DNA of 64,000 nucleotides, taken from the NCBI RefSeq assembly GCF_020923495.1, contig NZ_CP064048.1:1204501-1268500 (forward strand). Direction: 5' to 3'. The notes under the pieces were generated by a model. That model had not been told where the DNA came from and did not search any database. It saw nothing but the letters and a program-made list of their open reading frames with translations. Position numbers and translations under genes: made by a program. This document shows positions 6,301 through 64,000 of this stretch, piece by piece. The DNA comes from Brevibacillus sedimenti. Its GTDB lineage: Bacteria > Bacillota > Bacilli > Brevibacillales > Brevibacillaceae. Position 1 is the stretch's first letter, and every line of letters starts with the position of its first letter.

Positions 6301-6866
6301 TCGGGTTTGACCTGTACAGCCAGATGCTGAAAGAGGCGATTGACGAGCTGAAAGGGGAAGTGAAGCAGGAGAGCGTCTCCCCGGTGGAGATCAACCTGCA
6401 GCTGGACGCCTACATCCCGTCGCTCTACATCACCGACAGCCGGCAGAAAATCGAGATGTACAAAAAATTTGTGGCCGTCTCCTCCCTGGAGGACGTGGAC
6501 GACCTGGCCGAGGAACTGCTGGACCGCTTCGGCCCCGTGCCGAAACCGGTGGAGAACCTGCTCACGATCTCACGCCTGCGGGTGTACGCGCTCAAGCACC
6601 ACATCACCGAGATCAGCCAGAAAAATCCGGACGAGATCAAACTGTATCTGCATCCCAGCCAGAACAACAACATCGACGGCGGCGCGTTGTTCGCACTGGC
6701 CAGCAATTGGAACAGGCGATTGGGGCTCTCGGGTGGACAACAGATCGTCATTACTGTTAAAGTAAAAGGGTTACGGGAAGATGAAGGCGTGCAGCTTGTC
6801 GAAAAGCTGCTGCGTCAATTTCACTTGGTGCGCAAGGACACCAGTACGGAAAGCACCGTCTCCTGA
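3318..6866 (+). CDS. mfd: Transcription-repair coupling factor Mfd
   Basis: A 1182-residue SF2 translocase that removes RNA polymerase stalled at DNA damage and recruits UvrA. The N-terminal third is the UvrB-like module. The RNA-polymerase-interacting (CarD-like) segment YVVHVNHGIGKYLG is near residue 508, Walker A GDVGYGKT near 655, the Walker B box VDEEQRFGV near 753, and the TRG translocation motif region near 900-940. The C-terminal TRCF domain is complete. ATG 3318 is preceded by GAGAGGGG. The 140 bases between fin and mfd hold an A+T-rich stretch (TATAAATAATATATGGAGG near 3197) but no gene. Full length, no sign of damage. Confidence 0.97.
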   Translation: MQVIINPIKRDANIGTIVAGLEKGLHEQLVSGLAGSARQALMVALKQMAGRPMCVITHNMFQAQKVYEDLIELLPADEVLLFPGNELIGSELAIASPEMLAQRVHVFNRLARGFTGILVAPFAGVRRLVVPPHIWRDAQIELRVGEELDIDAFLLRCVELGYERVDMVERKGEFSVRGGIIDLYPIDSEWPVRIELFDVEIDSIRTFDMGTQRSLTSVQSFTIGPAKEVFATTALLQEAAVRLEQKLGETVSKLKDGAAKEKVVQKIGADVERMMQGQRFSHLYSYISVLYPTNDTLLSYMPADTVLIVDEPSRVLDTAAQLQKEEAEWLTGRIAEGEYMANLSLSRSYEETVGAKKRQIVYLSLFLRQSPKTQPQNIVNLTCRTMQNFHGQMNVLKTELARWKKSQDQIVFVAADLERAKRLERVLHDYEMEADLLTESVESVPPGRPTIIIGNLQTGFELPLNKLVVITEGEVFTPKQRKARKVQQTMTNTERIKNYLELKPGDYVVHVNHGIGKYLGIETKEILGIHKDYLHIQYAGGDSLFVPIDQIDHVQKYVGSEESEPKIYSLGGSEWKRVKNKVKSSVKDIAEDLIKLYAAREAAVGHAFSPDTAEQREFEAMFPYQETPDQLRAIAEVKQDMEKRRPMDRLVCGDVGYGKTEVAIRAAFKAVMDGKQVAVLVPTTILAQQHYETFRERFADYPIRVEVLSRFRSRKEQNAALKGLKEGTVDVVIGTHRLLSKDVQFRDLGLLIVDEEQRFGVTHKEKLKQMKTNVDVLTLTATPIPRTLHMSMIGVRDLSVIETPPENRFPVQTYVMEYGPALVREAIERELARGGQVFFLYNQVQGIEQMAEQIAALVPDARVAVAHGQMNESELEGIILDFLEGNYDVLVSTTIIETGVDIPNVNTLIIYNADKMGLSQLYQLRGRVGRSNRIAYAYFTYQRDKVLTEVAEKRLQAIKEFTELGSGFKIAMRDLSIRGAGNLLGAEQHGFINSVGFDLYSQMLKEAIDELKGEVKQESVSPVEINLQLDAYIPSLYITDSRQKIEMYKKFVAVSSLEDVDDLAEELLDRFGPVPKPVENLLTISRLRVYALKHHITEISQKNPDEIKLYLHPSQNNNIDGGALFALASNWNRRLGLSGGQQIVITVKVKGLREDEGVQLVEKLLRQFHLVRKDTSTESTVS

Positions 6867-6902
6867 GGGAGAACGGGCTTTTCGGGAAGGGAGAGCCATT
6901 CC

Positions 6903-7961
6903 ATGAAACGATCTGTAGCCATTTTGTCTTCCGCCGTCCTGGTCGTGGCACTGCTGACCGGATGCGGAGGAGACAACAACACAGATGCTTCCAACCAGAC
7001 CAACCAGAACCAAGCAGCAGGTGACCAGGCAAACGATCCGCTGGCGCAGTTTCCCAAGCTGAACCTGCCGTTCAAAGTGGATCAAAATGCCGCTGTCGTC
7101 GAGTACCAGGGAGGCACGCTCAGCGGGAAGGAATTTGAGACGTTCCTGCGAGTGATTAACTTCCTCAATCCGATGCAGGGGCAAATGATCGAAGTGGCGG
7201 ATCAGGAGATGTTAAAAACGTTCGCCCGTGAATTCACGGCGACGAAAATCCTGGCCGCCAAAGCCGACGCTGCGATCGAGAAAGAGTCCAGGGAGACGGC
7301 TGAGAAGAGCTTCGACAAGATCAAAGAGCAGTATCTCAGCCTCCTGGGCAACGACAATGCCAAGTTTGACAAGCTGATGGAGAATCAGGGCGTCACCAAG
7401 AATCTCGTGATCGATCAGATGACGCTCATCAACAACTCGATCAACGTGCTGAAAAAGAACATTGATGACGCGGCGTTGAAAAAGATGTACGACGGCATGA
7501 GCAAGGAATCGCTGACCGTCGCCTCTGTCCGCCACATCCTGATCTCCACCGAAAATCGGAAACCGGAAGAAGCGCTCAAACTGGCCAACGATCTGGCGGC
7601 CCGCCTGAAAAAAGGGGAGGATTTCGCCAAACTGGCCAAAGAGCACAGCGACGACCCGGGCAGCAAGGACACGGGCGGTCTGTACGAAGACGCCGACGTG
7701 AGCCAATGGGTGCCGGAGTTCAAGGACGCGGCCCTGAAACTGCCAATCGGGCAAATCAGTGATCCGGTAAAAACTGATTACGGCTACCATGTAATGAAGG
7801 TGGAAAGCCGGAAACAAAAGAGCTTTGACGAGATGAAGGAACAGCTTCGCGCGCAGGCGTTGGAGCAGGAGTACGACAAATTCGGCAATACCGAGCTGGA
7901 CAAGCTGATTACCAAGTACAACCTTCCGGAAGTGAAACAGCCTGCGGAACAGGCCAAATAG
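6903..7961 (+). CDS. PrsA-like foldase lipoprotein (parvulin-type peptidyl-prolyl isomerase)
   Basis: A 352-residue exported lipoprotein: an N-terminal signal peptide with lipobox LLTGC (Cys at about residue 22), a Gln/Asn-rich linker, a SurA_N/PrsA-type helical chaperone region (about 60-195), and a parvulin (PpiC) domain (about 203-302, with VRHILIS, DDPGSKDTGGLY and GYHVMKV). It would help secreted proteins fold on the outer face of the membrane. It lies 36 bases after mfd, with a GGGAGAG ribosome-binding site, and ends at a strong terminator. B. subtilis lacks a gene at this position. Its PrsA role is inferred from architecture; SurA-like foldase is the alternative name. Confidence 0.88.
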   Translation: MKRSVAILSSAVLVVALLTGCGGDNNTDASNQTNQNQAAGDQANDPLAQFPKLNLPFKVDQNAAVVEYQGGTLSGKEFETFLRVINFLNPMQGQMIEVADQEMLKTFAREFTATKILAAKADAAIEKESRETAEKSFDKIKEQYLSLLGNDNAKFDKLMENQGVTKNLVIDQMTLINNSINVLKKNIDDAALKKMYDGMSKESLTVASVRHILISTENRKPEEALKLANDLAARLKKGEDFAKLAKEHSDDPGSKDTGGLYEDADVSQWVPEFKDAALKLPIGQISDPVKTDYGYHVMKVESRKQKSFDEMKEQLRAQALEQEYDKFGNTELDKLITKYNLPEVKQPAEQAK

Positions 7962-51123: not shown

Positions 51124-51300
51124 ATGTCGTTCGTTCGCGAATACGTGCGCAGATTTGCCCGGGAGGAGGATGGCGTCACGATTGTGGAGATGGTCATTAT
51201 CATCGCCGTCATCCTGATCCTGATCATCCCCACGCTGGCTACCCTGGGGGAAGCGGAGGACGCCAAGTTGAAGGAACTGGAGGAAAAGCTCAGCAAATGA
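51124..51300 (+). CDS. Tad cluster 1: Flp-type pilin
   Basis: A 58-residue prepilin. A short charged leader ends in Gly17; the mature part begins VTIVEMVIIIAVILILIIP, so the cleavage site is G/V with Glu at mature position 5, the Flp/type IVb rule. A hydrophobic helix of about 20 residues is followed by a charged helix (EDAKLKELEEKLSK). ATG 51124 follows AAAGGAGGG; the stop overlaps the prepilin-peptidase start (ATGA). This is the only canonical prepilin in the two clusters and is likely the major pilin. Confidence 0.88.
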   Translation: MSFVREYVRRFAREEDGVTIVEMVIIIAVILILIIPTLATLGEAEDAKLKELEEKLSK

Positions 51301-51776
51301 AAGAGGCGGTCTTGTTCGCCCTGCTGGCGGCCGCTGCGTGGACTGACTGGCGCTGCCGCAAGGTGCCGAACAGGTTGACCATGCCCGCAATGGCCGCTGG
51401 TCTGCTTTATCAGTGGCAGAGCGGAGCGGGATGGCTGGCGTTGGGCGGATTGCTGGGGGCGTTTTTGCTGACGGTCGGGCCGGTCGCGGTGCGAGGCATG
51501 GGGATGGGCGACCAGAAGCTGCTGATGGCAGTCGGCGCCTGGACCAGTTGGGCGGAGGTGTATCCGCTGTTTTTGCACTCGCTGCTGCTGTGCCTGGCAG
51601 TAGTCTGCTGCCGTCCGAAGACGTGGCGGCGGCTGCGCTTCAATCTGCACGGACTGGCGGCGGGCTGGACCGCGCATCGGCAGTTGTGGCTGCCTGGTCG
51701 TGCAGAATCCGCCCTTGTTTTTCCCTATGCGGTTTTCCTGCTGGCCGCTTATTTGCTGCAGCCGGCCTGGAGGTAA
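51297..51776 (+). CDS. Tad cluster 1: A24 prepilin peptidase (TadV/CpaA-like)
   Basis: A 159-residue membrane aspartic peptidase with about six hydrophobic segments. The two catalytic aspartates are visible: D17 in AAWTDWRCRKVPN and the GxGD motif GMGMGDQKLL near residue 67. It would cleave the Flp leader and probably TadE. ATG 51297 overlaps the pilin stop, so pilin and peptidase are translated together. No such gene is present in cluster 2. Confidence 0.9.
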   Translation: MKEAVLFALLAAAAWTDWRCRKVPNRLTMPAMAAGLLYQWQSGAGWLALGGLLGAFLLTVGPVAVRGMGMGDQKLLMAVGAWTSWAEVYPLFLHSLLLCLAVVCCRPKTWRRLRFNLHGLAAGWTAHRQLWLPGRAESALVFPYAVFLLAAYLLQPAWR

Positions 51777-52798: not shown

Positions 52799-53416
52799 GT
52801 GCCGTCAAGAATTGTCGAACGGTACAAGCGTATTCTCAACGGAGAACAGAAGCGCTTTTCGCCGTACGAATTTGAAGATGCACAATACCGCAAGCAAAAA
52901 GTGCAGCTTGTCTTGCGGTACGCGATCGAACAGGTAAAAAAATGGACACCGGAGCAGGCGCGGAAGGAGATGAGCATCAAGGACGTCAAGGAACTGAAAC
53001 TGCATCTGGTCCGCGAGTACATTGAGCCGCCGATCGAGGCGAAGCCGCAGGACGTCTACTACATGGTCGAATACGCGTATCCGTACCTTCCGCGAATGAC
53101 GGAAAAACAAAAGGTGCTGTGGGTGTACCGGGAAGTGCTGGCGGGCGTCCGCCGCCACTTTCCACCGCTGTACTTTCAGAGTGTCAAGGGGGAGGAACGG
53201 GCCAAAATCTGCTTTGACTACATGTGCCGCGAACTGATGAAGCTGCAGGACCTGCGGCAGCTTCCCCGCATCTTCGGAAAGACGGAGCAGGCATACAGCC
53301 TGCTGAGAAAGTACAAGCTGAAAATCCTGGTCGATACCCTGTATTTCTCCCCTTTCGACATGATCACCGACATGTATCCCGAACTGGCCGATCCTGAATT
53401 GTGGAACGAACCGTAA
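52799..53416 (+). CDS. Hypothetical soluble protein between the two Tad operons
   Basis: A 205-residue mostly helical, basic protein with no signal peptide or membrane segment. Segments such as RIVERYKRILNGEQKRFSPYEF, VEYAYPYLPRMTEKQKVLWVYREVL and ICFDYMCRELMKL suggest a conserved Bacillota DUF (DUF4046-like is my best guess, unverified). GTG 52799 follows AGGAGTGAGGAG. It is preceded by a 92-base gap after cluster 1. Function unknown; I cannot tell whether it belongs with either Tad system. Confidence 0.65.
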   Translation: MPSRIVERYKRILNGEQKRFSPYEFEDAQYRKQKVQLVLRYAIEQVKKWTPEQARKEMSIKDVKELKLHLVREYIEPPIEAKPQDVYYMVEYAYPYLPRMTEKQKVLWVYREVLAGVRRHFPPLYFQSVKGEERAKICFDYMCRELMKLQDLRQLPRIFGKTEQAYSLLRKYKLKILVDTLYFSPFDMITDMYPELADPELWNEP

Positions 53417-53946: not shown

Positions 53947-54705
53947 GTGATTGTGAATAGCGCAATCGAATTGGTCGAACGCTGCTACGAACAAACGAAT
54001 TGCCTGATTTCACTGGAAGAGTTGAAAGAAGTGTTCATCGCGTACGTGTTCGGCAGTTACCAGGAAGAGTTCGTTGCCCGCTACGGACTGGATCGCTTTT
54101 ACGAACACCTAGACCAGCTCCGGTTAACCACATGCCGCAAAGACTTTGACCAGGCGGTGGAAGACTGGTATCTGCTCCAGTACGGCAGCCGATCAGATGA
54201 TGCCAACTACCACGACATTTTGTTCTCGCTCGTCAAGGAGGCGATTGTGCAATACAAGTCGGAAAATCGCAGCGCACTGATTCGGGACGTGACCAAACTG
54301 TTGACGACGCCGACGGGATTTATCAAGCGCTGGCAGATGGGACAGGCCCGCGAACGGACGCTGCCCGCCTACTTCAAATACCTGATGAAGCTCGGGATTC
54401 GCACGTACGATGACATCGAATCATTGGTGGACATGTGGCTGGTGGAGTATCCCAATGCGTTTGACAAGAAGCAGCAGCAGCTTTTTGCCAACCCTCCGCG
54501 AAAAGGCAGGCCCAACAACGTGGAACTGGCCCTGCTGCAGGACATGGTCAGCCAGGTAAAGCAGGAGCTCACCCCGCAGGAGCGCGAACGGCTCCGAAAA
54601 ATCTACTACTATCACCGCAAGTCGCTGACCATGAAGGAAATGGTGGAAAAATTTAAAAAGTACCTGCTGACGAAAGAGAATCAGAAGGGTTCGCAGGCGG
54701 GGTAA
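53947..54705 (+). CDS. Tad-like cluster 2: first gene, hypothetical soluble protein
   Basis: A 252-residue, helix-rich soluble protein without signal or membrane segment. The C-terminal 60 residues (VSQVKQELTPQERERLRKIYYYHRKSLTMKEMVEKFKKYL) are strongly charged and read like an assembly or DNA-binding tail. I do not recognise the family. GTG 53947 lies nine bases after GGGGG. Only three bases separate it from the next gene, so it opens the cluster 2 operon and is likely a dedicated component, perhaps an adaptor or regulator (inference). Confidence 0.65.
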   Translation: MIVNSAIELVERCYEQTNCLISLEELKEVFIAYVFGSYQEEFVARYGLDRFYEHLDQLRLTTCRKDFDQAVEDWYLLQYGSRSDDANYHDILFSLVKEAIVQYKSENRSALIRDVTKLLTTPTGFIKRWQMGQARERTLPAYFKYLMKLGIRTYDDIESLVDMWLVEYPNAFDKKQQQLFANPPRKGRPNNVELALLQDMVSQVKQELTPQERERLRKIYYYHRKSLTMKEMVEKFKKYLLTKENQKGSQAG

Positions 54706-54708
54706 GCG

Positions 54709-55581
54709 ATGTTTCAGCAGGTAAACCGCTTCGTCACCCAGTTCCGCGAACTGGAGAAGAGGGAATACGCCCGATCCCGGGAAGAAGAGCGATTGTGGCA
54801 GTCATTAAAGGACAAACTGTCAGCCTCTTTGACGGAAGAACAACCTGCAGCGGTGCGCCGCTGTATCGCCGTAACCGGGTTGTACGCCCAGGCCGGCGCC
54901 AGTTTCCTGGCGGCCAACGCGTCGTTTTTGCTGGCCGGCAGCGGAGTTTCCGTCACGCTGTGCGAACTGCCCGGTACCGCTTCCTATTATTACTTCGCGC
55001 TCGACTGCGAACGCAGAGCGCATCATCGCTTCAAGAACTCATCCGCATCCGTGCTCCTCATGCAATCCAATCACTTGCGCATCTTGGTGGATACCCCTTT
55101 GTCGAATGAATCATCAACTCCGACCGACACGGCGGACTGGCTGCTGAGAATGACCAAAGAGAGCGCCACGGTCGTCATCGATTTGTCTTCGCGCTGGAAA
55201 GAAGAACAGGCCGTCCGGGTAATGGATCTGGCTGACGAAATCTGGGTCGTGTTCGATTCCGACCTGGCCAGGTTTACCCGATTGTTTCTGACAGAAGAAA
55301 CGCCCTCGTGGTGGGAGAAACACGGCGAAAAAATCAGGCTGATCGCAAACAAATGGAACGAATATCTGAGCCGCTCCGCCATCATGAAAAAGGTGGAAGG
55401 AACCATCTCGCTCTGGAACAGCGAACGTTTTGCTCCAGGCATTGACGCGGTCATTCCCCTGATCGACAGCGAGAAAACGGCGGCTGCCCAAGCAAAAGCC
55501 AGCCTCTTGCTGGAGCTGTACACGGAGGAGGAACATCGGTTCCTACCGCTGCTACACTCGGAAAAGGGAAGGATGTTATGA
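54709..55581 (+). CDS. Tad-like cluster 2: TadZ/ParA-fold protein lacking Walker A
   Basis: A 290-residue protein with the ParA-like order of elements: a first strand and loop CIAVTGLYAQAGASFLAANASFLLA, then VSVTLCELPGTASYYYF, a switch-like ILVDTPLSNES and VVIDLSSRWKEEQ, DEIWVVFDSD. The P-loop position reads YAQAGASF with no lysine, so ATP binding by the usual mode is unlikely. TadZ proteins are known atypical ParA relatives that mark the pilus assembly site. ATG 54709; stop overlaps the next start (ATGA). Confidence 0.65.
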   Translation: MFQQVNRFVTQFRELEKREYARSREEERLWQSLKDKLSASLTEEQPAAVRRCIAVTGLYAQAGASFLAANASFLLAGSGVSVTLCELPGTASYYYFALDCERRAHHRFKNSSASVLLMQSNHLRILVDTPLSNESSTPTDTADWLLRMTKESATVVIDLSSRWKEEQAVRVMDLADEIWVVFDSDLARFTRLFLTEETPSWWEKHGEKIRLIANKWNEYLSRSAIMKKVEGTISLWNSERFAPGIDAVIPLIDSEKTAAAQAKASLLLELYTEEEHRFLPLLHSEKGRML

Positions 55582-56366
55582 AAAAGCAGACGCTGCTGCT
55601 CATCAGTTTGCTCTCGTTTCTCTTGGCCGGTTCCTGCTTTTACGCGGCGACCCGGTATATCGACGCGCTGGCCATTGAACGGCTGTTTGCGCCGGTGGTA
55701 AAGGTGGCCGAAGGAAAACAGATCGACCCCTTTGAACCGATCACGCGAGAGGACGTGGTGCTGGTTCAGGAAGAAGTGGACGAGATTTTGCCCGGGTCTT
55801 TTCAATCGCTGGAGAGCGTATTGGGAAAACGCAGTTCCCAGACGATCTACGCCGGGGAACAAGTGCTGAAACAGAAGCTGACCGATACGCAACTGCTGCC
55901 GGAAAAGGGGGAGGCTCGCTACGAATTTCCGCTGACGTCTATCGAACCCATCACCGAGCTGCGAAAAGGGGACCGCGTCAAGATTTGGGTAAAGTACAAG
56001 CCGCCGACGGAGCTGGAGCATTTGCCCGAACCGACGCATTTTCGCAAGACGAACGCGACGGCCGACCTGCTGTTTGAAAGCCGGTTGGCAACGGTGAAGG
56101 ACAGCAACGGTACGGAGATATACACGCTGAAGCCAAGCATGCTTCCAGGCCCCGATCACATGGATGCTGTGTTTAACGGCTCCCGGGAAAAACCGCTCTT
56201 GAACGGGGAAAAGCGTTACCGCGACTACCGTGCGCAGCCGACCGCCTTGACGGCTTATATCGGCTTCAACCTTTCCGATCAGCAGTATGTCGCATTGAGC
56301 GAAGCCATGATGTACGGGACCATTCAGATTGGTCAAATTTCCGATGCGGAGGATCGGACCCCATGA
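55578..56366 (+). CDS. Tad-like cluster 2: CpaB/SAF-like membrane-anchored protein
   Basis: A 262-residue protein with an N-terminal membrane helix (about 5-24) and SAF/CpaB-like text: VVKVAEGKQIDPFEPITREDVVLVQ, IYAGEQVLKQKL, then FPLTSIEPITELRKGDRVKIWVKY. It matches the role of the first gene of cluster 1 (45607-46335) but is diverged in sequence. The SAF domain faces outside. Both its start and its stop overlap neighbours by four bases. Confidence 0.72.
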   Translation: MKKQTLLLISLLSFLLAGSCFYAATRYIDALAIERLFAPVVKVAEGKQIDPFEPITREDVVLVQEEVDEILPGSFQSLESVLGKRSSQTIYAGEQVLKQKLTDTQLLPEKGEARYEFPLTSIEPITELRKGDRVKIWVKYKPPTELEHLPEPTHFRKTNATADLLFESRLATVKDSNGTEIYTLKPSMLPGPDHMDAVFNGSREKPLLNGEKRYRDYRAQPTALTAYIGFNLSDQQYVALSEAMMYGTIQIGQISDAEDRTP

Positions 56367-57484
56367 GAACCCTTGTATGTTTTCCGATGAAATCACTGGT
56401 CAAAACCTACCTGCCGACGGAATGCGAGTCGCTGGTTGCAGAGTCGGCCGAAGAGTATTTTCGCCTCGCCAAACTGTACCGACCGGAAGCAGCGGTGCTG
56501 TTTTCCGAAATGTTTGACGAACCGGTCTGGGAGTGGCTGCCGCGTGTGCAGGAGGTTCTCCCGGAGGGTGTGCCCGTCATCATCGTGCCTTTGTACAAGG
56601 ATGAATCCCTGATCGCAACAGTCATGGAGAAAATCGATCCAGCCGGATTGTACATCCTTCCGGCCACTCTCAACCAGGAGGAGATCCGGGAAAAAATCGC
56701 GCTGATACTGGGCGTTACGCAGCAAATCGAGGAACTGCCCGCCGCAAAGGGCGACGGCATTGTCTACACTTTGATGAGCTACGGTTCCTCAGGCATCACC
56801 ACGTTTTGCATCAATTATCCGATTCTGCTGGCAAAGCGCAATCCCGACAAGCGCATCGTCGTTCTTGACATGAACGCGCAAAAGCCGGATTTGACCCGTT
56901 TTTTCAAGCTGCAGCTGCATCATCTGGCGTTGTTTCGGCCAGACCTGCTGGAAATGCGCACAGCGCTGGCCCGCAAGTGGGAGCGAGGCTGCAAACAGAT
57001 CAGCCACTTGCCCAACCTCTACTATGCCAGCGCCACATGCAACTGGAAAAGCGGAGAGATCTCCAATTTGCTCACGGCCCTGCGCCAGCAGTTCGATTAC
57101 ATCTACATCGACTGGGGATACTGCTTTCCGGAGACGGAGGCCTTGCACCGGTTGATTTACGAGTCCGACCGCAATCTGTTTTTTGTGCGGGCTGATCCGT
57201 TTGGCATCGAGAACGCAAAGGCGTGGATTCATGCCTGGGCAGAGCGGGGGGTGAAGTATCAGGTGATGCTCAGTCATCTGGACAAGGGGCAGACGTACCG
57301 CATCGGTGAAGGAATCTCCGTATATGGAGTGGTGCCGCGCATTTCCAATGCCCGGCTGATTCAATCGCACCGCAGTCACAGCGTGCTGGTGGAAGAAATC
57401 TTTCCGCCCAAGCCGTACGTCACCAGCCTGCAGGCGATGGTGGATGCGGTACATGCGGACGAAGGAGCTGTGGTTTGCCGATGA
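56363..57484 (+). CDS. Tad-like cluster 2: CpaE-like ParA-fold protein with degenerate P-loop
   Basis: A 373-residue protein. Residues 1-115 are receiver-like (CFPMKSLVKTYLP, VPVIIVPLYKDESLI), as in CpaE. The ParA core begins IVYTLMSYGSSGITTFCINYPILLA: the P-loop SYGSSGITT (139-147) keeps Gly and Thr-Thr but has lost both lysines. VVLDMNAQKPDLTRFF and YIYIDWGYCFP follow at the switch positions. It is a second ParA-type protein in one operon, also without a standard Walker A. ATG 56363 and stop both overlap neighbours (ATGA). Confidence 0.72.
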   Translation: MRTLVCFPMKSLVKTYLPTECESLVAESAEEYFRLAKLYRPEAAVLFSEMFDEPVWEWLPRVQEVLPEGVPVIIVPLYKDESLIATVMEKIDPAGLYILPATLNQEEIREKIALILGVTQQIEELPAAKGDGIVYTLMSYGSSGITTFCINYPILLAKRNPDKRIVVLDMNAQKPDLTRFFKLQLHHLALFRPDLLEMRTALARKWERGCKQISHLPNLYYASATCNWKSGEISNLLTALRQQFDYIYIDWGYCFPETEALHRLIYESDRNLFFVRADPFGIENAKAWIHAWAERGVKYQVMLSHLDKGQTYRIGEGISVYGVVPRISNARLIQSHRSHSVLVEEIFPPKPYVTSLQAMVDAVHADEGAVVCR

Positions 57485-58830
57485 AAACCGCTATCCGACA
57501 ATGGAACGCATCGCAGCTCAAGGATGTGGAAGACCTCAAGCAAGCAGCCCGCGACTACCTGAACCACTTTGGCACCACTCCCGAGGAGAAGATGGAGATG
57601 CAGCGGATATTGACCCTCGCGGAGATGGGCGACCGGAACAGCCACAACCATGTCATCCTGCGTTTGCAGCATTACTTTGAAGAAGTGCTGAAGCGGCCGG
57701 TAACCGAGGAAATTCTGCCGCATGTCAACGGATACGAAGGGCTGTTGTTTGCCACGTACGGGTGGGGAATTCTGGATGCCGTCCTGCATTTGTCGCCATG
57801 GGTGGAGGAGGTACGGGTGTCAGCAGGTCGACCGGTGGCGTACATCGAGCAGGGGCAAAAAAAGAGCCTGCCGTACACACCCACTTGGACGGAGGTGGAG
57901 ACGCTTCAGCAAAAGCTGACCAATGCCGCCGGCCTGACCTTTCACGAAAAAAAGCCGCGCTTGAGCGGGTATCTCGATTCGTTGAAAGCCAGGCTGACCA
58001 TGTTCACCTTTCCCTATTCCCGGGTGCCGACCATCATTGTGCGCCGCTTTACCACGCCTTCGTTTTCGCTGGACCAATTGCGAATGCAGCCGCTGCCCAC
58101 GTTTGACGAAAGGGTGCAGCTTTTGCTGGAGCAGCAGGTGTACGGCAGAAGCAACGTCCTGGTGATCGGACCGATGGCAGCAGGCAAGACAACGCTGATG
58201 CTCTGCATGTTAAAACTGAAAGACCCTCAAACCGAGTACGTCACGCTTTTTGAAAGTGAACATGAAATGAGATTTGGTGATGTTTGGCCGGGCGAGGTGA
58301 TCGAACTGCAAAACGTGGAAGAGATCGGCATCGAATTGGAAAGCTGCTTCAAGGACATGTACCGGACCACCGCCAACACGATTCTGATCGGGGAGATACG
58401 GGAGCCGATCGAAGCGTATCACTTTGTCAACGCCGGCGTGCGGGGAACAGACGCTACGATCGCCGCCATGCATGAACGATTTCCACACAAGGCACTGCAA
58501 GACTTGACCGACCTCGTTTATCAATATGGCGGACGGAGCATTGAACTGACCCAGGAGAGGATCAGTCGGGCAGTCAATTTCGTCAATTCACTGACCTATC
58601 GGAATAATGGACACCGCTATATCGACGCCATACATGTCAGCGAATGGAACGACGTGATGAACCGGGTTGAGTCCGTGCCGCTTGTCTTTCGCAACAGGCA
58701 GACAGGTGCTTATGAATGGACCGGGAAGAAGCTGGACGAACATTTGGTGGAATACATGTGCCACGTGGGCAGGGCTGATCTGGCTGTCTTAAAGGAGTTA
58801 CGTCTCATCGATATGGGAAGGATGCTATGA
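57481..58830 (+). CDS. Tad-like cluster 2: CpaF/TadA-like secretion ATPase
   Basis: A 450-residue ATPase with the type II/IV secretion fold. Walker A GPMAAGKTTLM is at 230-240, Walker B with catalytic Glu in TILIGEIREPIEAYHFVNAG, and a His-box-like TIAAMHERFPHKALQDLTDLVYQYGG. It is much diverged from the cluster 1 enzyme (which has SGGTGSGKT and VIIVGEVRGGE) and lacks its long N-terminal arm, but all nucleotide-handling residues are present, so it is the likely sole motor of cluster 2. ATG 57481 overlaps the previous stop. Confidence 0.82.
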   Translation: MKTAIRQWNASQLKDVEDLKQAARDYLNHFGTTPEEKMEMQRILTLAEMGDRNSHNHVILRLQHYFEEVLKRPVTEEILPHVNGYEGLLFATYGWGILDAVLHLSPWVEEVRVSAGRPVAYIEQGQKKSLPYTPTWTEVETLQQKLTNAAGLTFHEKKPRLSGYLDSLKARLTMFTFPYSRVPTIIVRRFTTPSFSLDQLRMQPLPTFDERVQLLLEQQVYGRSNVLVIGPMAAGKTTLMLCMLKLKDPQTEYVTLFESEHEMRFGDVWPGEVIELQNVEEIGIELESCFKDMYRTTANTILIGEIREPIEAYHFVNAGVRGTDATIAAMHERFPHKALQDLTDLVYQYGGRSIELTQERISRAVNFVNSLTYRNNGHRYIDAIHVSEWNDVMNRVESVPLVFRNRQTGAYEWTGKKLDEHLVEYMCHVGRADLAVLKELRLIDMGRML

Positions 58831-59726
58831 AACACCTGCTGTTTATTCCCATGTCTGTCTGCCTGTTTGCCGGGTTCTGGCTGCTCGGACTTCATTTGTA
58901 CCGTACCTGGTCCGCTCCCAACGTCTTCTTTCCCAAGACGGTGGCCGTGTGGCGAGAGAGGATGCTGCGCCACAAAACAAACCGCATCATATACGAGAGG
59001 TACGAAAAATGGTGCGGGATCGCTGGCGGTACGCCGGAAGCCCATATTCTGCTGTCGCTGATTGGGGGAGCTGCAGGGTTTGTTTCCGGCATCCTGCTTG
59101 GCAATATCGTCGTATCCCTGTCCCTGTTTGTGCTCTTGGTATTGCTGCCGACTCTGCTGCTGTACGCCCGCTATACAGTGCGCATCAACAAGAAAATTGG
59201 CGCGTTTTGCCGCTTTGTCGACCTGTTTGCACGTTATTACAGCAGCCGGAAAAACATTATCCTGACGTTTCGAGATATGGTGGAAGAATGTCCGAAAGAG
59301 CTGCTGCCCGATTTGCTGCTGCTCAACAACCATCTGTCGGACGGAGGAAATCCCGTCCGGGCGGTGGAGATCTTCGCCGAGCGGATTAATCACCCGTGGG
59401 CCCACGATTTTGCCATGTATGCGGCCAGCGGTCTGGAAGGCGAGACGGAGGACATTCAGAGCGCACTGAATCGATTGACCAACGAAATGTTTATTCAACA
59501 AGACGAAAAAGAGGAAAGGAACTCTGAGATTTACGCGATCTGGGTCAGCTTGATTCTGGTCATCCTGATCTGCATCTGTCTGATTCCTTACAACCAGAGC
59601 CTGCTGAAAGATTCATACCGCCTGTATTTCTTTACCGCTGACGGACAGGCCATACTGTCGCTCGCGGTAACGGTCTGGGCTCTTTCCATTTTATTAGCGT
59701 TCATCTGGGGACGGAGGTATCGCTGA
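58827..59726 (+). CDS. Tad-like cluster 2: TadB-like membrane platform protein
   Basis: A 299-residue protein with membrane segments at about 5-25, 75-118, 233-255 and 272-290 and a T2SSF-like cytosolic region (IGAFCRFVDLFARYYSSRKNIILTFRDMVEECP, NPVRAVEIFAERI). The layout copies TadB. Sequence identity to the cluster 1 TadB is low by eye. Start and stop overlap neighbours (ATGA, TGATG). Confidence 0.72.
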   Translation: MKHLLFIPMSVCLFAGFWLLGLHLYRTWSAPNVFFPKTVAVWRERMLRHKTNRIIYERYEKWCGIAGGTPEAHILLSLIGGAAGFVSGILLGNIVVSLSLFVLLVLLPTLLLYARYTVRINKKIGAFCRFVDLFARYYSSRKNIILTFRDMVEECPKELLPDLLLLNNHLSDGGNPVRAVEIFAERINHPWAHDFAMYAASGLEGETEDIQSALNRLTNEMFIQQDEKEERNSEIYAIWVSLILVILICICLIPYNQSLLKDSYRLYFFTADGQAILSLAVTVWALSILLAFIWGRRYR

Positions 59727-60565
59727 TGCGCTTGTTGCTCATGTATGTCTGCCTGACGCTGGGGTCCCTGTTCGTGTTTGTGGCCGTGTTTGCCATCGGC
59801 AAGCAGGTGGCGTCGATGCGCCGCCCCAGGCTGTTTGTCACCGGGCAGTGGCGCCGCTTGTGGGAAAAGGCGGTCAACGCCGAGGAAGACGGCGCGTGGG
59901 AAAAACTGCTGGCGCGAGCAGGCCGGCCGTTTGGTTGGGGAAAACCGGAGTGGGTGTTCCTGCAGCTTGCCAGCGGGAGTGCCGTTTGTGTGCTGATTCT
60001 GTTGTGGGGGATGCTGAGCGCAGGCGAGTCTTTTCCGCTGTTTTCCCTGATTGTGGCGTCTGCGATCAGTTTTATGCTGCCGTACGTCGGCTTAAAGATG
60101 TGGGCGGGGTACCGCGAGGAAGTGCTCAGCACCGATATCGCCCGCTTCGTCAACCGATACGTAAATCTGCTGGAAAACCAGGTGCCCATATACAATGCGA
60201 TGGTCAAGGCAGCACGGCCTACGCGCAAGCTGAAGGAGTACCTGCCAACGTTGTCAGAGTGGAACAAGGACCGCGAGGAAGCACTGGAGACGTTTAAGCG
60301 CAGGCTTGGTGTGGACGACGCGGTCATGCTCGTGTCCAGCATGAGGACGGTCGAGCACCTAAGCGAGGGGCAGATGGCTGTCACCATGCAGCGGTTGGAG
60401 TGGGCGGTCGATCATCGACGCATGTATCGTCACCGCAAGCAGATCAAATCGCTGGGGATTGGCTACAGCGTGATCGTTTACCCGGCTTTCTACATTGGAT
60501 TGTTGGTAGCCATGTTTCCCTGGTACAAGTTGCTTACCGAGATTCTCGACAAATACTTGACGTAA
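59726..60565 (+). CDS. Tad-like cluster 2: TadC-like membrane platform protein
   Basis: A 279-residue protein with N-terminal helices (about 3-25, 84-122), a cytosolic region (DIARFVNRYVNLLENQVPIYNAMVKAARPTRKLKEYL, EHLSEGQMAVTMQRLEWAVDHR) and a C-terminal helix pair. It pairs with the TadB-like protein. ATG 59726 overlaps the previous stop. It is followed after 15 bases by the first of the short membrane proteins. Confidence 0.7.
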   Translation: MRLLLMYVCLTLGSLFVFVAVFAIGKQVASMRRPRLFVTGQWRRLWEKAVNAEEDGAWEKLLARAGRPFGWGKPEWVFLQLASGSAVCVLILLWGMLSAGESFPLFSLIVASAISFMLPYVGLKMWAGYREEVLSTDIARFVNRYVNLLENQVPIYNAMVKAARPTRKLKEYLPTLSEWNKDREEALETFKRRLGVDDAVMLVSSMRTVEHLSEGQMAVTMQRLEWAVDHRRMYRHRKQIKSLGIGYSVIVYPAFYIGLLVAMFPWYKLLTEILDKYLT

Positions 60566-60580
60566 GGTAGGGGCAGCAAC

Positions 60581-60727
60581 ATGACTAAGCTCTTTTCCAT
60601 TCTCATCTGCATTGTATTGACACTGGGCATTATCGTATCCAGTCTGTCAAAGGTAAACGGCTCGATTGTACATGAGGGCGGTTTGCGCGACAGGGCGGTT
60701 CATTGGATAAACCAGGCCATCCCTTAG
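60581..60727 (+). CDS. Tad-like cluster 2: short membrane protein A (candidate subunit)
   Basis: A 48-residue protein: a hydrophobic N-terminal helix (MTKLFSILICIVLTLGII) and a short polar tail. ATG 60581 follows TAGGGGCAG. The N-terminal 21 residues match the next protein closely in pattern (M-[TS]-K-[LM]-F, then LGI-x-VSS). There is no Gly/Glu prepilin site. It occupies the place of the pilin gene after TadC in cluster 1, so it may be a structural subunit (inference). Confidence 0.55.
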   Translation: MTKLFSILICIVLTLGIIVSSLSKVNGSIVHEGGLRDRAVHWINQAIP

Positions 60728-60801
60728 GACAAACCGGTTCCCCCGCTCATGTTTTCGGCAGTTTGTCAACCTGATCAAATCATGTAAGGAGAGTGTTTCG
60801 T

Positions 60802-61002
60802 ATGTCCAAAATGTTTTTTATCTTCCTGGCGTGTGTCATGGTGCTTGGCATCGGCGTCAGTTCCTACGGAAACGAGCTCAGCCCATCAGCCAACCAATCG
60901 GCGGAACGCATCAACAATTCGGTCCGCTCGCTCAAATACGACACCAGAAGCGAACGGGTGCAGTTCGAAATGCAGGACGGCACTCCGTACTCCAGCAACT
61001 GA
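60802..61002 (+). CDS. Tad-like cluster 2: short membrane/exported protein B, paralogue of A
   Basis: A 66-residue protein beginning MSKMFFIFLACVMVLGIG, similar to the preceding protein over the first 21 residues, then a soluble tail with NQSAERINNSVRSLKYDTR and ending DGTPYSSN. The N-terminus could act as a signal peptide or an anchor. ATG 60802 follows AAGGAGAG; its stop overlaps the next ATG (TGATG). The pair A/B looks like a duplicated subunit. Confidence 0.6.
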   Translation: MSKMFFIFLACVMVLGIGVSSYGNELSPSANQSAERINNSVRSLKYDTRSERVQFEMQDGTPYSSN

Positions 61003-61145
61003 TGCTCAATCTGCAGGCGTTTCTCATCATCCTGGTCATGGTTGGCAGTCTATGCGCGTTTATATGGGGGAGCGATCCCTCAAAACAGTTGTATCAAACC
61101 CAACAGGAAAGGGTGTACAGGTCAGCGACGTTCAGCTTTCATTGA
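61002..61145 (+). CDS. Tad-like cluster 2: short membrane protein C
   Basis: A 47-residue protein, ATG 61002 overlapping the previous stop: one hydrophobic helix (AFLIILVMVGSLCAFIW) and a polar tail (DPSKQLYQTQQERVYRS). Translational coupling is the main support. A competing frame over the same bases is noted under rejected items. Function unknown. Confidence 0.5.
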   Translation: MLNLQAFLIILVMVGSLCAFIWGSDPSKQLYQTQQERVYRSATFSFH

Positions 61146-61165
61146 ACGATCGCTGACCGGCTTAG

Positions 61166-61573
61166 ATGGTCAAGACAAAGGTATTTCTCATCTGCCTGTC
61201 TGTCATGATTGTGCTGTTTTCCGCCGTTGCGGCCAGCCACATGTACACCATGGAACGAGCGATCGCACGCAGCATTTTCGCTGATGTGCTGGATGACATG
61301 CAGGATATCGGCTATCTCGATCCGGCCCTTGCCGATTACTACCGGCAAAAGATGGCGGAGCTGGGCTGGGACGTGACGGGAGACGTGTTTGCGGGGAGCT
61401 GGCCTCAAACGGAGCAGCAGCGGGCCTTGAAGGAGCGAAACGAAATGGTCACGCTTACCCTCACCGTCCGGCCGTCCCGTGTCGCCCAATGGCTGAATCA
61501 GTTTGCGGAAGGCAATGCCGCGTTCTTGTTTACGGGCAGTCGTCCCTCCGAATACTTTGATCCGGGGTGGTAG
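61166..61573 (+). CDS. Tad-like cluster 2: single-span membrane protein D
   Basis: A 135-residue protein with an N-terminal helix (about 5-23, VFLICLSVMIVLFSAVAA) and an external domain of mixed helix and strand: ERAIARSIFADVLDDMQDIGYLD, MAELGWDVTGDVFAGSWP, VTLTLTVRPSRVAQWLNQF. TadE/minor-pilin-like proteins of other Bacillota have this outline, but no prepilin Gly/Glu signal is present. ATG 61166. It precedes protein E by one base. Confidence 0.6.
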   Translation: MVKTKVFLICLSVMIVLFSAVAASHMYTMERAIARSIFADVLDDMQDIGYLDPALADYYRQKMAELGWDVTGDVFAGSWPQTEQQRALKERNEMVTLTLTVRPSRVAQWLNQFAEGNAAFLFTGSRPSEYFDPGW

Positions 61574-61574
61574 T

Positions 61575-61727
61575 GTGAACAAACTCATTGCTGTGCTTGC
61601 CTTGATGGTGATCGTCCTGCCTATAACTGTTCACCTGCTGTTGAGCGGCCCCGACAACCTCCTTTCGGTCTGCACGCGGTTTTTCGGGGACCTGTTGGAA
61701 AACGTGACGCGGTTTGGGACGGGCTGA
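61575..61727 (+). CDS. Tad-like cluster 2: short membrane protein E
   Basis: A 50-residue protein from GTG 61575 (GGGGTGG just upstream): helix LIAVLALMVIVLPITVHLLL, then a short tail with one Cys. Its stop overlaps the next ATG (TGATGG). It is similar in size and form to proteins A-C. Function unknown. Confidence 0.55.
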   Translation: MNKLIAVLALMVIVLPITVHLLLSGPDNLLSVCTRFFGDLLENVTRFGTG

Positions 61728-62143
61728 TGGGACAGGTTGTGGCCGTTCTTCTCAATGTGATGGTGCTTCTTTTGGTCCCGCTGGGTATCCTGCAGGTTCA
61801 TACCGTGGTGCAGACGCATAACGAATTGCTGGAGGTGAGCGCTGCCGCCGCCAAATACGTCAGCAATCACGGGGGCGGCAGCGATGCAGAAGTATTGGCT
61901 GACGTCCGTTCCTTTGTCTCGCGGGAACTGTCGGAAAAATCGTTTTTCCTGCATGACTCAGAGCTGTCCGTCAGCATCGTCAGAACGCGGGCGGCCGATC
62001 CAGTATTGTGGAGTCACGAAGATGAATTTTTACTGCAGGTGGAAATCCCCTATCCGCGCCTGACTCAACTGCTTCCTGTAGGCAGCGAAACGATGCGGGT
62101 GGAGCGGTACGGGACGATCAATATCATGGATTACGATTTATAA
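61727..62143 (+). CDS. Tad-like cluster 2: TadE-like pseudopilin F
   Basis: A 138-residue protein whose membrane helix starts at residue 3 (VVAVLLNVMVLLLVPLGILQV), followed by HNELLEVSAAAAKYVSNHGGG and a beta-rich C-terminus (DEFLLQVEIPYPRLTQLLP). This is the shape of TadE, but with no leader and no Glu-5, as though already in mature form. ATG 61727 is coupled to the previous stop. Probably a minor subunit of the cluster 2 machine. Confidence 0.62.
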   Translation: MGQVVAVLLNVMVLLLVPLGILQVHTVVQTHNELLEVSAAAAKYVSNHGGGSDAEVLADVRSFVSRELSEKSFFLHDSELSVSIVRTRAADPVLWSHEDEFLLQVEIPYPRLTQLLPVGSETMRVERYGTINIMDYDL

Positions 62144-62214
62144 ACCAGGTTGCGAATAAAGCTGTTTGCCCAATCGAATGGCGGCCCCCATGGGAAATTA
62201 GCTGCCCGAACGGT

Positions 62215-62829
62215 TTGAAAAGGGAGGGGAGGCTTACGGGCATCAATGTACTGTCCATTTCGGCTCTGCTGTTATTTCTGCTGGTGGGGTTGTTTGTCGT
62301 CGACGCCGACATTGCCATGCAGAAAAAGACAGAAGTGAAAACCTTGCTGGAACTGGCCAACCATCACGCTACCTTTGCAGTCGAGCCAGTGTTGAAGACA
62401 GAGGGCGTCATTGATCTGGTCGAGGAAGAGGCGCTGCTCCGCTTTGACCAGCGCATGCGGGAGAATGGCGGCTATCGCCGGGAAGGCAGCAGCTACCTGC
62501 CGGCCGCCGACAGCGTCACTACCGATCCGCTGCGGTTTGTGCGCCATTACGTCGACTTTCGTTCCTGGCGTAAGGATCTGCAGCTCCGGCTGCGGTACGA
62601 CGGAGCTGCTCTGCACCTGGAGCAGGCAATAACCGGCGCAGAGCGTCCGTCTGGCGGTCATCTGCAGATTGTGGTGGTGACCCAGCGCGGGGAGGAACTC
62701 CGGCTTGCTCCGAAGACAATGGTAGGCCCCTCTCATGTGGTCGTTGCGTACGTGGACGAGCGTCCGTTTCTGCCGTTACTGCCCGCTCACGCCTTTCCCG
62801 TCGTCAGCGTCGAGGAGCTAAAGCGGTAA
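62215..62829 (+). CDS. Tad-like cluster 2: TadF/TadG-like pseudopilin G
   Basis: A 204-residue protein. A short basic N-terminus with Gly before the helix (RLTGINVLSISALLLFLLVGLFVV) mirrors the cluster 1 protein at 52200, again without Glu-5. The external region has HYVDFRSWRKDLQLRLRYDG and IVVVTQRGEELRLAP. The start is a problem: TTG 62215 is the only standard codon, while the best ribosome-binding sequence (GGGAGGGGAGG, about 62222-62232) lies inside the frame. It ends the operon. Confidence 0.6.
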   Translation: MKREGRLTGINVLSISALLLFLLVGLFVVDADIAMQKKTEVKTLLELANHHATFAVEPVLKTEGVIDLVEEEALLRFDQRMRENGGYRREGSSYLPAADSVTTDPLRFVRHYVDFRSWRKDLQLRLRYDGAALHLEQAITGAERPSGGHLQIVVVTQRGEELRLAPKTMVGPSHVVVAYVDERPFLPLLPAHAFPVVSVEELKR

Positions 62830-62994: not shown

Positions 62995-63087
62995 TTGTCG
63001 AAATACGCATACAATAACGCATCCGAGAACAACTGGCTTGTACCTCAACGTGAATATCCATTCCAGAGAAGTGAGGGTTGCATATGA
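62995..63087 (+). CDS. Possible 30-residue leader peptide before the sigma gene
   Basis: TTG 62995 opens a frame (MSKYAYNNASENNWLVPQRE...) that ends at TGA 63085-63087, overlapping the sigma-factor ATG as ATGA. GGGAGG lies 14 bases upstream, farther than usual. The same TTG and following bases read TTGTCGAA, a perfect Spo0A-box sequence. It could be a coupled leader peptide or chance. Confidence 0.3.
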   Translation: MSKYAYNNASENNWLVPQREYPFQRSEGCI

Positions 63088-64000
63088 CTGTGAGTACCTC
63101 CACTTTCCAGTCTACTCCCCGTCGCTGGCGGGAAGTCGAAAAGCAGTTGGGTATTACCGTGCCCCGCTCGTTGCGGTCCGACACGTCAACCCTGCTGTTT
63201 CTGGAAAGCGTCGCTGCAACACCCATGTTGGACAAAGAGGAAGAGCTGGACTGCCTGGTTCGCTATCAGCGTGACGGGGATTTGAGCGCCCGGGAGACGC
63301 TGGTGCGGGCCTATTTGCGCTATGTGGTCAGCACAGCCCTGCGCCATTTACAAAAGGGCATGCCGTTTATGGACTTGATCCAGGAAGGAACTATCGGCCT
63401 GTTTACTGCCATTGACAAGTTTGATGTGAACCGAGGTGTCCGTCTCTACCATTATTCCCACTGGTGGATTTCACAGGCGATCACCCGCGCGATTAACGAT
63501 AAAGGTGCGCTCATCCGCATTCCCGTCCACATGCATGAGCAGATTCGGCACTATCAAAAGCAGGTGACTCACCTGGCCCACCTGCTGAACCGCACGCCGG
63601 ATCGGCAGGAGATTGCCGACTGGTTGGACATTCCCGTAGAAAAAGTAGAAGCAATTGAGTATGCGCTGATGCTCAAAATGGAATCGATTGATGCTGAACT
63701 GGACGACGAACCCAACTCATTTGAACATGATGACGAATGCCTGAGCTATGCGGAGATCGTAGATGACGGAGAAGCGTCGTTGGAAGACTGGATTGAGAAG
63801 ATCGATCTGCGCGTTCAAATGCGAGCCGCGCTGGAACGTCTTAGCCCGCGCGCCCAGGAGATTATCGCCATGCGCTACGGCCTGTACGACGACCATGTTT
63901 ACACGCTGGAGGAAGTGGGCAGGATGTTTGGCCTCACTCGAGAGCGCATCCGTCAGATCGAGGCGACCACCATTGATCGGCTGCGCAAGCAAAAGTGTTC
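63084..64000 (+). CDS. SigA-like sigma-70 family RNA polymerase sigma factor (3' end beyond window)
   Basis: At least 305 residues, running off the window without a stop. Region 1.2/2 is MLDKEEELDCLVRYQRDGDLSARETLV, then LIQEGTIGLFTAIDKFD and YSHWWISQAITRAI (core binding and -10 recognition). Region 3 is IRIPVHMHEQIRHYQKQ, and region 4 is LSPRAQEIIAMRYGL, YTLEEVGRMFGLTRERIRQIEA with the -35 helix-turn-helix. It resembles SigA/RpoD but lacks the long N-terminal 1.1 extension, so it is a second, alternative group 2-like factor. ATG 63084 follows GTGAGGG. Its place directly after Tad-like cluster 2 suggests, but does not prove, a regulatory link. Confidence 0.85.
   Translation, partial: MTVSTSTFQSTPRRWREVEKQLGITVPRSLRSDTSTLLFLESVAATPMLDKEEELDCLVRYQRDGDLSARETLVRAYLRYVVSTALRHLQKGMPFMDLIQEGTIGLFTAIDKFDVNRGVRLYHYSHWWISQAITRAINDKGALIRIPVHMHEQIRHYQKQVTHLAHLLNRTPDRQEIADWLDIPVEKVEAIEYALMLKMESIDAELDDEPNSFEHDDECLSYAEIVDDGEASLEDWIEKIDLRVQMRAALERLSPRAQEIIAMRYGLYDDHVYTLEEVGRMFGLTRERIRQIEATTIDRLRKQKC

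What the first reader, a model, noticed from the sequence alone, without database searches (positions are those of the whole stretch)
53947..62829. A second, divergent Tad-like operon with no prepilin peptidase and a set of novel short membrane proteins
Next to a canonical Tad/Flp operon sits a compact operon of about 14 genes, nearly all overlapping by 1-4 bases. It keeps a SAF/CpaB-like protein, a CpaF-like motor with intact Walker A and B, and TadB/TadC-like platform proteins. In place of a Flp pilin and peptidase it has seven membrane proteins of 47-204 residues, plus an unknown opening gene. It may build a different fibre or act as a secretion device, and could be a spore- or wall-specific relative of the Tad machine.
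Basis: partly seen in the sequence, partly recalled or inferred. Interest (0 to 1): 0.85.

Follow-up and report, generated by a model that had tools for sequence, protein, structure and literature searches.

The report
Tad-like pilus operon lacking prepilin peptidase
Brevibacillus bacteria carry a second, very different version of a pilus-building machine that lacks its usual protein-trimming enzyme and appears to make one of its parts from a very unusual ACG start codon, which makes peptidase-free pilus assembly and weak-start-codon control directly testable.

Summary
The operon is real and is a core chromosomal locus of Brevibacillaceae, not a decayed copy of the Tad operon next to it. Its short membrane proteins go with the motor: g8 and g13 match in the same 36 of 39 genomes, and all 14 genes are under purifying selection. 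Motor, g10 and g13 belong to a branch shared with VirD4-linked plasmid and element clusters, apart from Tad1/Tad3; the window's genome has no VirD4. No small protein has a conserved prepilin-cleavage motif, and g13 is predicted pilin-shaped. I read it as a peptidase-independent Tad-type short fibre or pseudopilus. Two surprises: g13 appears to start with ACG in 33 of 36 genomes (ATG in 3), and none of 50 other conserved Thr columns is all-ACG; integrase-bearing elements sit inside g8 in 3 genomes, with a matching junction in a fourth. Opening gene g0 survives without the machine in 2 genomes, so is probably a linked regulator. A spore role is unsupported.

The parts
53947..54705 (+). g0: 252 aa all-helical protein with an invariant GRP (AT-hook-like RRGRPNN) segment; candidate DNA-binding regulator, linked to but separable from the machine
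   Evidence: ORF; 20-ortholog alignment with G187 R188 P189 invariant; all-helical model, pLDDT 85.6; no clear fold match; kept without g1-g13 in L130 and L131. Naming the segment an AT-hook is recalled, not a database hit.
54709..55581 (+). g1: 290 aa protein in the position of a first TadZ/CpaE-like gene; no family match
   Evidence: orthologs 33-94%
55578..56366 (+). g2: CpaB/RcpC-like SAF protein
   Evidence: SAF 24.7 bits over cut-off 21; pilus_cpaB below cut-off; hhalign to Tad1 CpaB (3 sequences) only 13%
56363..57484 (+). g3: TadZ/CpaE-like protein whose P-loop region (YGSSGITTF) lacks the Walker lysine
   Evidence: AAA_31 E=0.006, below cut-off; alignment of 12 orthologs
57481..58830 (+). 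g4: CpaF/TadA-type secretion ATPase (motor)
   Evidence: T2SSE E=7e-11; TrbB/TadA models, below their cut-offs; Walker A and catalytic columns invariant in 9 rows
58827..59726 (+). g5: TadB-like platform protein
   Evidence: T2SSF E=0.0016, below cut-off; hhalign to g6 76%
59726..60565 (+). g6: TadC-like platform protein
   Evidence: no relevant Pfam match; hhalign to g5 76%, to Tad1 TadC 16.5%; position and orthologs
60581..60727 (+). g7: 48 aa leaderless hydrophobic protein, related to g8; candidate pilin
   Evidence: hhalign g7-g8 95% over the N-terminal 24 residues; prepilin motif in 0 of 24
60802..61002 (+). g8: 66 aa, the most conserved short protein; candidate major subunit; insertion site of integrase-bearing elements in relatives
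   Evidence: 36 of 39 genomes, 69-85% in uninterrupted copies outside the nearest relative; junctions
61002..61145 (+). g9: 47 aa single-pass protein
   Evidence: orthologs and dN/dS
61166..61573 (+). g10: 135 aa pilin-like protein; a plasmid relative carries the name DUF4320
61575..61727 (+). g11: 50 aa single-pass protein
61727..62143 (+). g12: 138 aa protein with N-terminal hydrophobic helix
62236..62238 (+). ACG, the probable start codon of g13, after a GGGAGG/GGAGG Shine-Dalgarno run
62236..62829 (+). g13: 197-codon pilin-shaped protein (44-residue N-terminal helix plus beta domain)
   Evidence: model pLDDT 90.2, pTM 0.82; 36 of 39 genomes
52799..53416 (+). c52799: highly conserved unknown gene between Tad1 and the operon; linked neighbour, not part of the machine
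   Evidence: 37 of 39 genomes, 68-96% outside the own genome
51124..51300 (+). Tad1 Flp pilin with canonical EEDG-VTIVE cleavage site (neighbouring operon, for contrast)
51231..51776 (+). Tad1 TadV-type A24 prepilin peptidase (neighbouring operon)
   Evidence: PF01478 at G000:1255809-1256105, i.e. window 51309-51605

Best explanation
Operon g1-g13 encodes a Tad-type (type IVc-like) filament machine that has become independent of prepilin peptidase. The CpaF-like ATPase g4 would drive the g5/g6 platform, g1/g3 would position it, and g2 would form the extracytoplasmic guide. The subunits g7-g13 would be inserted directly as membrane proteins with very short N-terminal tails and assembled without leader cleavage: g7/g8 as abundant short subunits, g10, g12 and g13 as minor subunits. 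The result would be a short fibre or pseudopilus through the wall, most likely for attachment. g13 would be kept scarce by its ACG start codon, as expected for a tip or initiator subunit. Shown: gene content, family-wide conservation, purifying selection, lack of a conserved cleavage motif and of a local peptidase, and the start codon pattern. Predicted: the g13 fold. Inferred: assembly, roles of the individual subunits, low dose of g13, and surface function.
Confidence: 0.5

Rival explanations
1. An ordinary Tad pilus variant that borrows the prepilin peptidase of Tad1, Tad3 or a third locus; its subunits are cleaved at atypical sites.
For: Three A24 peptidases in G000, one about 2 kb upstream of g0 in the conserved neighbour operon; g13 keeps a Gly at the start of its helix (TG-INVLSIS), resembling the ETG-SVNVLIL of its plasmid relative.
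Against: No conserved G-x4-E motif in any of the seven proteins; g7-g12 start within a few residues of the hydrophobic helix, leaving no leader; with the ACG start g13 would have a two-residue leader.
Confidence: 0.25
2. A domesticated mating or DNA-handling device: the operon descends from the VirD4-linked modules and still moves DNA or holds mating cells together.
For: Related clusters lie beside VirD4 on pBbsI and within about 10 kb of it on a Paenibacillus rhizovicinus plasmid, on the same contig as VirD4, MobL, MobA/MobL and TrbL in G026 and near a weaker VirD4 and a Replic_Relax protein in G033; the motor clades together with them.
Against: 4 of 12 genomes searched, the window's own among them, have no PF02534 match while keeping the operon. 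The tree is unrooted, so the direction of descent is open. In G010 and G027 the VirD4 matches are on other contigs, so linkage is not shown there.
Confidence: 0.15
3. A sporulation- or wall-specific secretion device comparable to SpoIIIA.
Against: SpoIIIAA model matches at 18 bits, cut-off 281; upstream of g0 many of the 21 sequences aligned share a TTGAC box that looks like an ordinary -35 (reading of the box recalled, no promoter tool was run).
Confidence: 0.05
4. A decaying duplicate of Tad1.
For: Single genomes show broken copies: CpaF of G018 has a 50-nt duplication, g13 of G016 an insertion, and G023 a truncated extra g12-g13 piece.
Against: Motor lies on another branch than Tad1/Tad3, 100/100 support; purifying selection and family-wide retention.
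Confidence: 0.02

Closest known systems
Tad / type IVc pilus (Flp pilus)
   Same: CpaB-like SAF protein, CpaF-type ATPase, two TadB/C-like platform proteins, TadZ-position proteins, several small pilin-like proteins
   Different: No Flp with a G-x4-E site, no TadV peptidase in the operon, no recognisable TadE/TadF, P-loop of g3 without its lysine, motor on a separate branch
Plasmid Tad-like clusters near a VirD4-like protein (Brevibacillus brevis pBbsI; Paenibacillus rhizovicinus plasmid, whose g10 relative is named DUF4320)
   Same: Same order from CpaB to the two subunit genes related to g10 and g13; motor on the same side of the tree
   Different: Plasmid subunits carry ERG/ETG-type leaders and there is a VirD4 neighbour (an A24 peptidase lies about 11 kb away on the Paenibacillus plasmid); the chromosomal operon has none of these. 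Relatives of g7-g9, g11 and g12 were not found on the two plasmids in the one comparison made, which covered pBbsI only (L047)
Conserved non-canonical start codons of Bacillota (infC AUA/AUU, ccpN AUA, cvfC1 AUU)
   Same: Weak start codon with strong Shine-Dalgarno, conserved across species (PMC13009471 and PMC13068326, passages seen)
   Different: Those vary the third base of AUG; here the middle base is changed (ACG), in 33 of 36 genomes of a family

Membership tests
Tad / type IVc pilus system | CpaF/TadA-type ATPase | tested here: met
   T2SSE E=7e-11; active-site columns invariant; hhalign to Tad1 CpaF 96.6%
Tad / type IVc pilus system | Two T2SSF-type platform proteins TadB and TadC | tested here: inconclusive
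   g5 T2SSF below cut-off, g6 no relevant match; g5-g6 hhalign 76%, each to Tad1 TadB/TadC at most 16.5%
Tad / type IVc pilus system | CpaB/RcpC protein | tested here: met
   SAF over cut-off; but pilus_cpaB model below cut-off and hhalign to Tad1 CpaB 13%
Tad / type IVc pilus system | Flp pilin with prepilin cleavage site | tested here: not met
   motif absent in the g7, g8, g9, g11, g12, g13 rows tested and in 34 of 36 g10 rows
Tad / type IVc pilus system | TadV-type A24 prepilin peptidase in the locus | tested here: not met
   none among the 14 operon proteins (Pfam); nearest is in Tad1
Tad / type IVc pilus system | TadE/TadF minor pilins | tested here: inconclusive
   no Pfam TadE/TadF match for g10-g13; hhalign at most 8.5%; g13 predicted pilin-shaped
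Tad / type IVc pilus system | Assembles an extracellular filament | not testable with these tools
   needs microscopy
Conjugative T4SS | VirD4 coupling protein | tested here: not met
   0 matches of PF02534 in G000; 4 of 12 genomes without any
Conjugative T4SS | Relaxase with the operon | tested here: not met
   none among the 14 operon proteins (Pfam); relaxases elsewhere in G000 were not searched
SpoIIIA channel | SpoIIIAA-AH gene set | tested here: not met
   SpoIIIAA model 18 bits, cut-off 281; no other SpoIIIA match, NCBIfam on 10 of 14 proteins and Pfam on all 14
Gene with non-canonical start codon | No standard start in frame, correct SD spacing, codon conserved beyond synonymous expectation | tested here: met
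   27 of 32 distinct ACG contexts lack ATG/GTG/TTG/CTG before the upstream stop; SD-like run 6-8 nt away in 30 of 32; 1 of 51 Thr columns is all ACG, this one
Gene with non-canonical start codon | Ribosome initiation observed at the codon | not testable with these tools
   needs ribosome profiling or reporters

The most novel reading that the evidence does not exclude
A Tad-derived machine, fixed in the chromosome of a whole bacterial family, assembles 'born-mature' leaderless pilins without any prepilin peptidase, and sets the dose of its tip subunit g13 by an ACG initiation codon held through most of the history of the family; temperate phages repeatedly use the candidate major subunit g8 as their attachment gene, switching the machine off in lysogens.
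Probability: 0.3. Interest if true: 0.85.

Novelty: new variant of a known kind. Interest (0 to 1): 0.63.

Why it matters
Prepilin peptidase cleavage is treated as essential for type IV-family filaments; TadV is described as essential for maturation of Flp, TadE and TadF (PMC12307814, passages seen). A conserved machine with an intact motor but no conserved cleavage site would show that this step can be dropped. The ACG start codon is a clean natural experiment: a bacterial gene in which the middle base of the start codon is changed in almost every species sampled of a family. Two library searches gave nothing comparable: 'ACG start codon' with 'bacteria' found 22 papers, of which I saw 15 titles and abstract openings, and 'ACG initiation codon' with 'Bacillus' found none. 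The operon also links chromosomal Tad-like machines to plasmid modules that PLSDB types as non-mobilizable despite a VirD4-type gene.
Full report
What is there. The window lies in a one-contig 3.93 Mb genome whose closest named relative among the loci found is Brevibacillus thermoruber 423 (96% in the motor). Upstream is an ordinary Tad operon (Tad1) with a canonical Flp pilin at 51124-51300, an A24 peptidase, a TadE gene over the Pfam cut-off and a TadF/G-like gene below it. Then come an unknown conserved gene, c52799, and the operon g0-g13 at 53947-62829. A sigma-70 type gene follows.

Gene assignments. g2 is CpaB/SAF-like, g4 CpaF-like, g5 weakly T2SSF-like, and g3 weakly ParA-like without the Walker lysine. 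g1, g6 and the small proteins have no clear family. g7-g13 are seven short membrane proteins. g7 and g8 share their first 24 residues (hhalign 95%).

Conservation. The motor was found at 73-100% in 34 of the 36 family genomes (in two pieces in G018). Of the other two, G029 has no match and G027 only the distant paralog; G027's contig ends 424 nt beyond g8. In the full set of 39 family genomes, g8 and g13 match in the same 36 (g8 counted also where it is interrupted). The order Tad1 - c52799 - g0 - ... - g13 is kept across the species read. The three exceptions are G029, G061 and G062. G029 and G061 keep Tad1, c52799 and g0 but have no g1-g13 at the locus, and G062 has no match to g8, g13 or c52799. 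So g0 does not serve this machine alone; its AT-hook-like GRP segment and helical model suggest a regulator, which is inference. Against the B. thermoruber locus all 14 genes have dN/dS of 0.07-0.23; more distant pairs are mostly saturated at synonymous sites.

Wider relatives. Five of the 36 family genomes carry a second, distant motor (30-40% identity). In three of them (L044, L045, L046) g2-g6 and g10, g12, g13 run in the same order; in G033 the g10/g13 relatives lie about 10.6 kb beyond g6, and L047 is plasmid pBbsI. VirD4 lies beside the cluster on pBbsI and about 10 kb away on a Paenibacillus rhizovicinus plasmid. G026 contig 23 has, about 16 kb from its cluster, VirD4, MobL, MobA/MobL and TrbL matches, and G033 contig 20 a weaker VirD4 and a Replic_Relax protein. 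In G010 and G027 the VirD4 matches lie on other contigs, so linkage is not shown. g10 and g13 align with two adjacent subunit genes at the end of the Tad-like stretch on both plasmids, which have charged leaders ending in Gly. A UniRef entry names the Paenibacillus plasmid g10 relative 'DUF4320 family'. A 24-row motor tree puts the operon and the four element-borne copies together (100/98), with the plasmid pair alongside (100/99) and Tad1/Tad3 on a separate branch (100/100); it is unrooted. The window's own genome has no PF02534 match.

Leaderless subunits. A scan for [GAS]-x4-E followed by a hydrophobic stretch gave 0 of 24 (g7), 0 of 27 (g8), 0 of 28 (g9), 2 of 36 (g10), 0 of 29 (g11), 0 of 36 (g12) and 0 of 36 (g13), against 25 of 25 for Tad1 TadE but only 4 of 23 for Tad1 TadF. 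The sequences came from tblastn matches covering at least 80% of the window protein and without stops, so a leader outside the match would be missed. g13 is predicted with good confidence (pLDDT 90.2, pTM 0.82) as a 44-residue N-terminal helix followed by a beta domain, a pilin-like layout. A Thermus type IV-like pilin is a weak structural match among unrelated ones.

ACG start codon. The frame of g13 has no usable ATG, GTG or TTG in most species. At the homologous place stands ACG, mostly 6-8 nt after a Shine-Dalgarno-like run. Mapping the loci to their genomes, 33 of 36 genomes have ACG and 3 (G011, G025, G031) have ATG; the three clade-2 relatives read there (L044, L045, L046) also have ATG. 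Of 38 distinct contexts, 32 are ACG; in 27 of these no ATG/GTG/TTG/CTG lies between ACG and the upstream in-frame stop, and in one (L076) the stop is the codon just before. The five others, including the window (TTG 62215), have an upstream candidate. Spacing is 6-8 nt in 30 of 32 and 3 nt in the window and its nearest relative, where a second GGGAGG lies 8 nt upstream (and sequence). Control: of 51 columns that are Thr in at least 85% of rows across ten genes, only this one is ACG in every row (41 of 41 rows whose match reaches it; rows of the ATG genomes do not reach it); overall ACG is 33% of Thr codons. Rows are related and some genomes enter through more than one locus, so this is not a formal probability. 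Of 85 database matches I read 13: 6 begin MG(I/V/M)N at exactly this place, one (B. borstelensis) two codons later, and the other 6 further inside the helix, five of them ten codons later (MLFFLL or similar). The late ones include ACG species such as B. reuszeri and B. ruminantium, but also G031's strain SYP-B805, which has ATG at the site, so late gene calls are not by themselves evidence for ACG. Weak start codons are known to lower yield in Bacillota: AUA/AUU gave roughly 10% of AUG in S. aureus, up to 30% for ccpN (PMC13009471, passages). I found no ACG example in the passages read, and the all-codon E. coli study was not held.

Elements in g8. In B. borstelensis (L032/L086 = G024) and B. 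reuszeri NIT02 (L034/L087 = G010) a phage-type tyrosine integrase with repressor-like genes lies on one side, and g8 is joined within codons 3-8. In G023 (L035/L088) an element with a serine-type recombinase joins it near codons 19-22. Far-side contigs of G024 and G023 carry endolysin-like genes. G027 shows a right-hand junction like the first two at a contig end. That is 4 of 36 genomes. The two halves lie on different contigs, or only one was seen, so no complete element was read; that they are prophages is inference.

Mechanism. The best reading is a Tad-derived short-fibre machine that inserts leaderless subunits directly and uses the CpaF-like motor to assemble them, with g13 kept scarce. 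The gene set, selection and start codon pattern are shown; the g13 fold is a prediction; assembly, absence of processing, and function are inferred. It works like a Tad system but fails two defining features tested (Flp cleavage site, local peptidase), so I file it as a new variant and not as a standard Tad pilus.

Noticed in passing
L032/L086, L034/L087, L035/L088, L075 (g8 of relatives; window 60802-61002): Phage-type elements with tyrosine or serine integrases sit inside g8 in 3 genomes, and a matching junction occurs in a fourth, at two different cores; g8 looks like an integration hotspot.
   Followed up: partly
window 62215-62238: First-stage start TTG 62215 is probably wrong; g13 most likely starts at ACG 62236, in 33 of 36 family genomes.
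   Followed up: yes
L050 about 7440-7640 (G018): CpaF of one species carries a 50-nt tandem duplication that breaks the frame; could be a reversible off-state or an assembly error.
   Followed up: partly
L085 about 4240-7030 (G016): g13 is interrupted by about 2.3 kb holding a Rep-like gene and a methyltransferase-like gene (my reading of the sequence, no database search).
   Followed up: partly
L089 4321-5052 (G023): A truncated extra g12-g13 piece lies just upstream of Tad1, probably a remnant of a duplication of the locus.
   Followed up: partly
G024:C46:7937-8290 and G024:C29:32667-32948: In B. borstelensis c52799 is split between two contigs although the C46 piece is not at a contig end, so a second insertion may interrupt that gene too.
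   Followed up: no
window 52799-53416: c52799, an unknown 205 aa protein, is 68-96% conserved in 37 of 39 genomes and stays with Tad1 in the two genomes (G029, G061) that have lost the second operon.
   Followed up: partly
L125 (G026:C23), L126 (G033:C20), L093, L094: Mobile or plasmid Tad-like clusters with VirD4 nearby, and in some cases relaxase-type proteins; the two plasmids are typed non-mobilizable by PLSDB, so this may be an unrecognised transfer-linked module.
   Followed up: partly
window 63078-63998: A sigma-70 family gene follows the operon in many species and remains downstream of g0 where g1-g13 are lost.
   Followed up: no
G000:1590814-1594562 (L054): A third Tad-type ATPase and A24 peptidase lie elsewhere in the same genome.
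   Followed up: no
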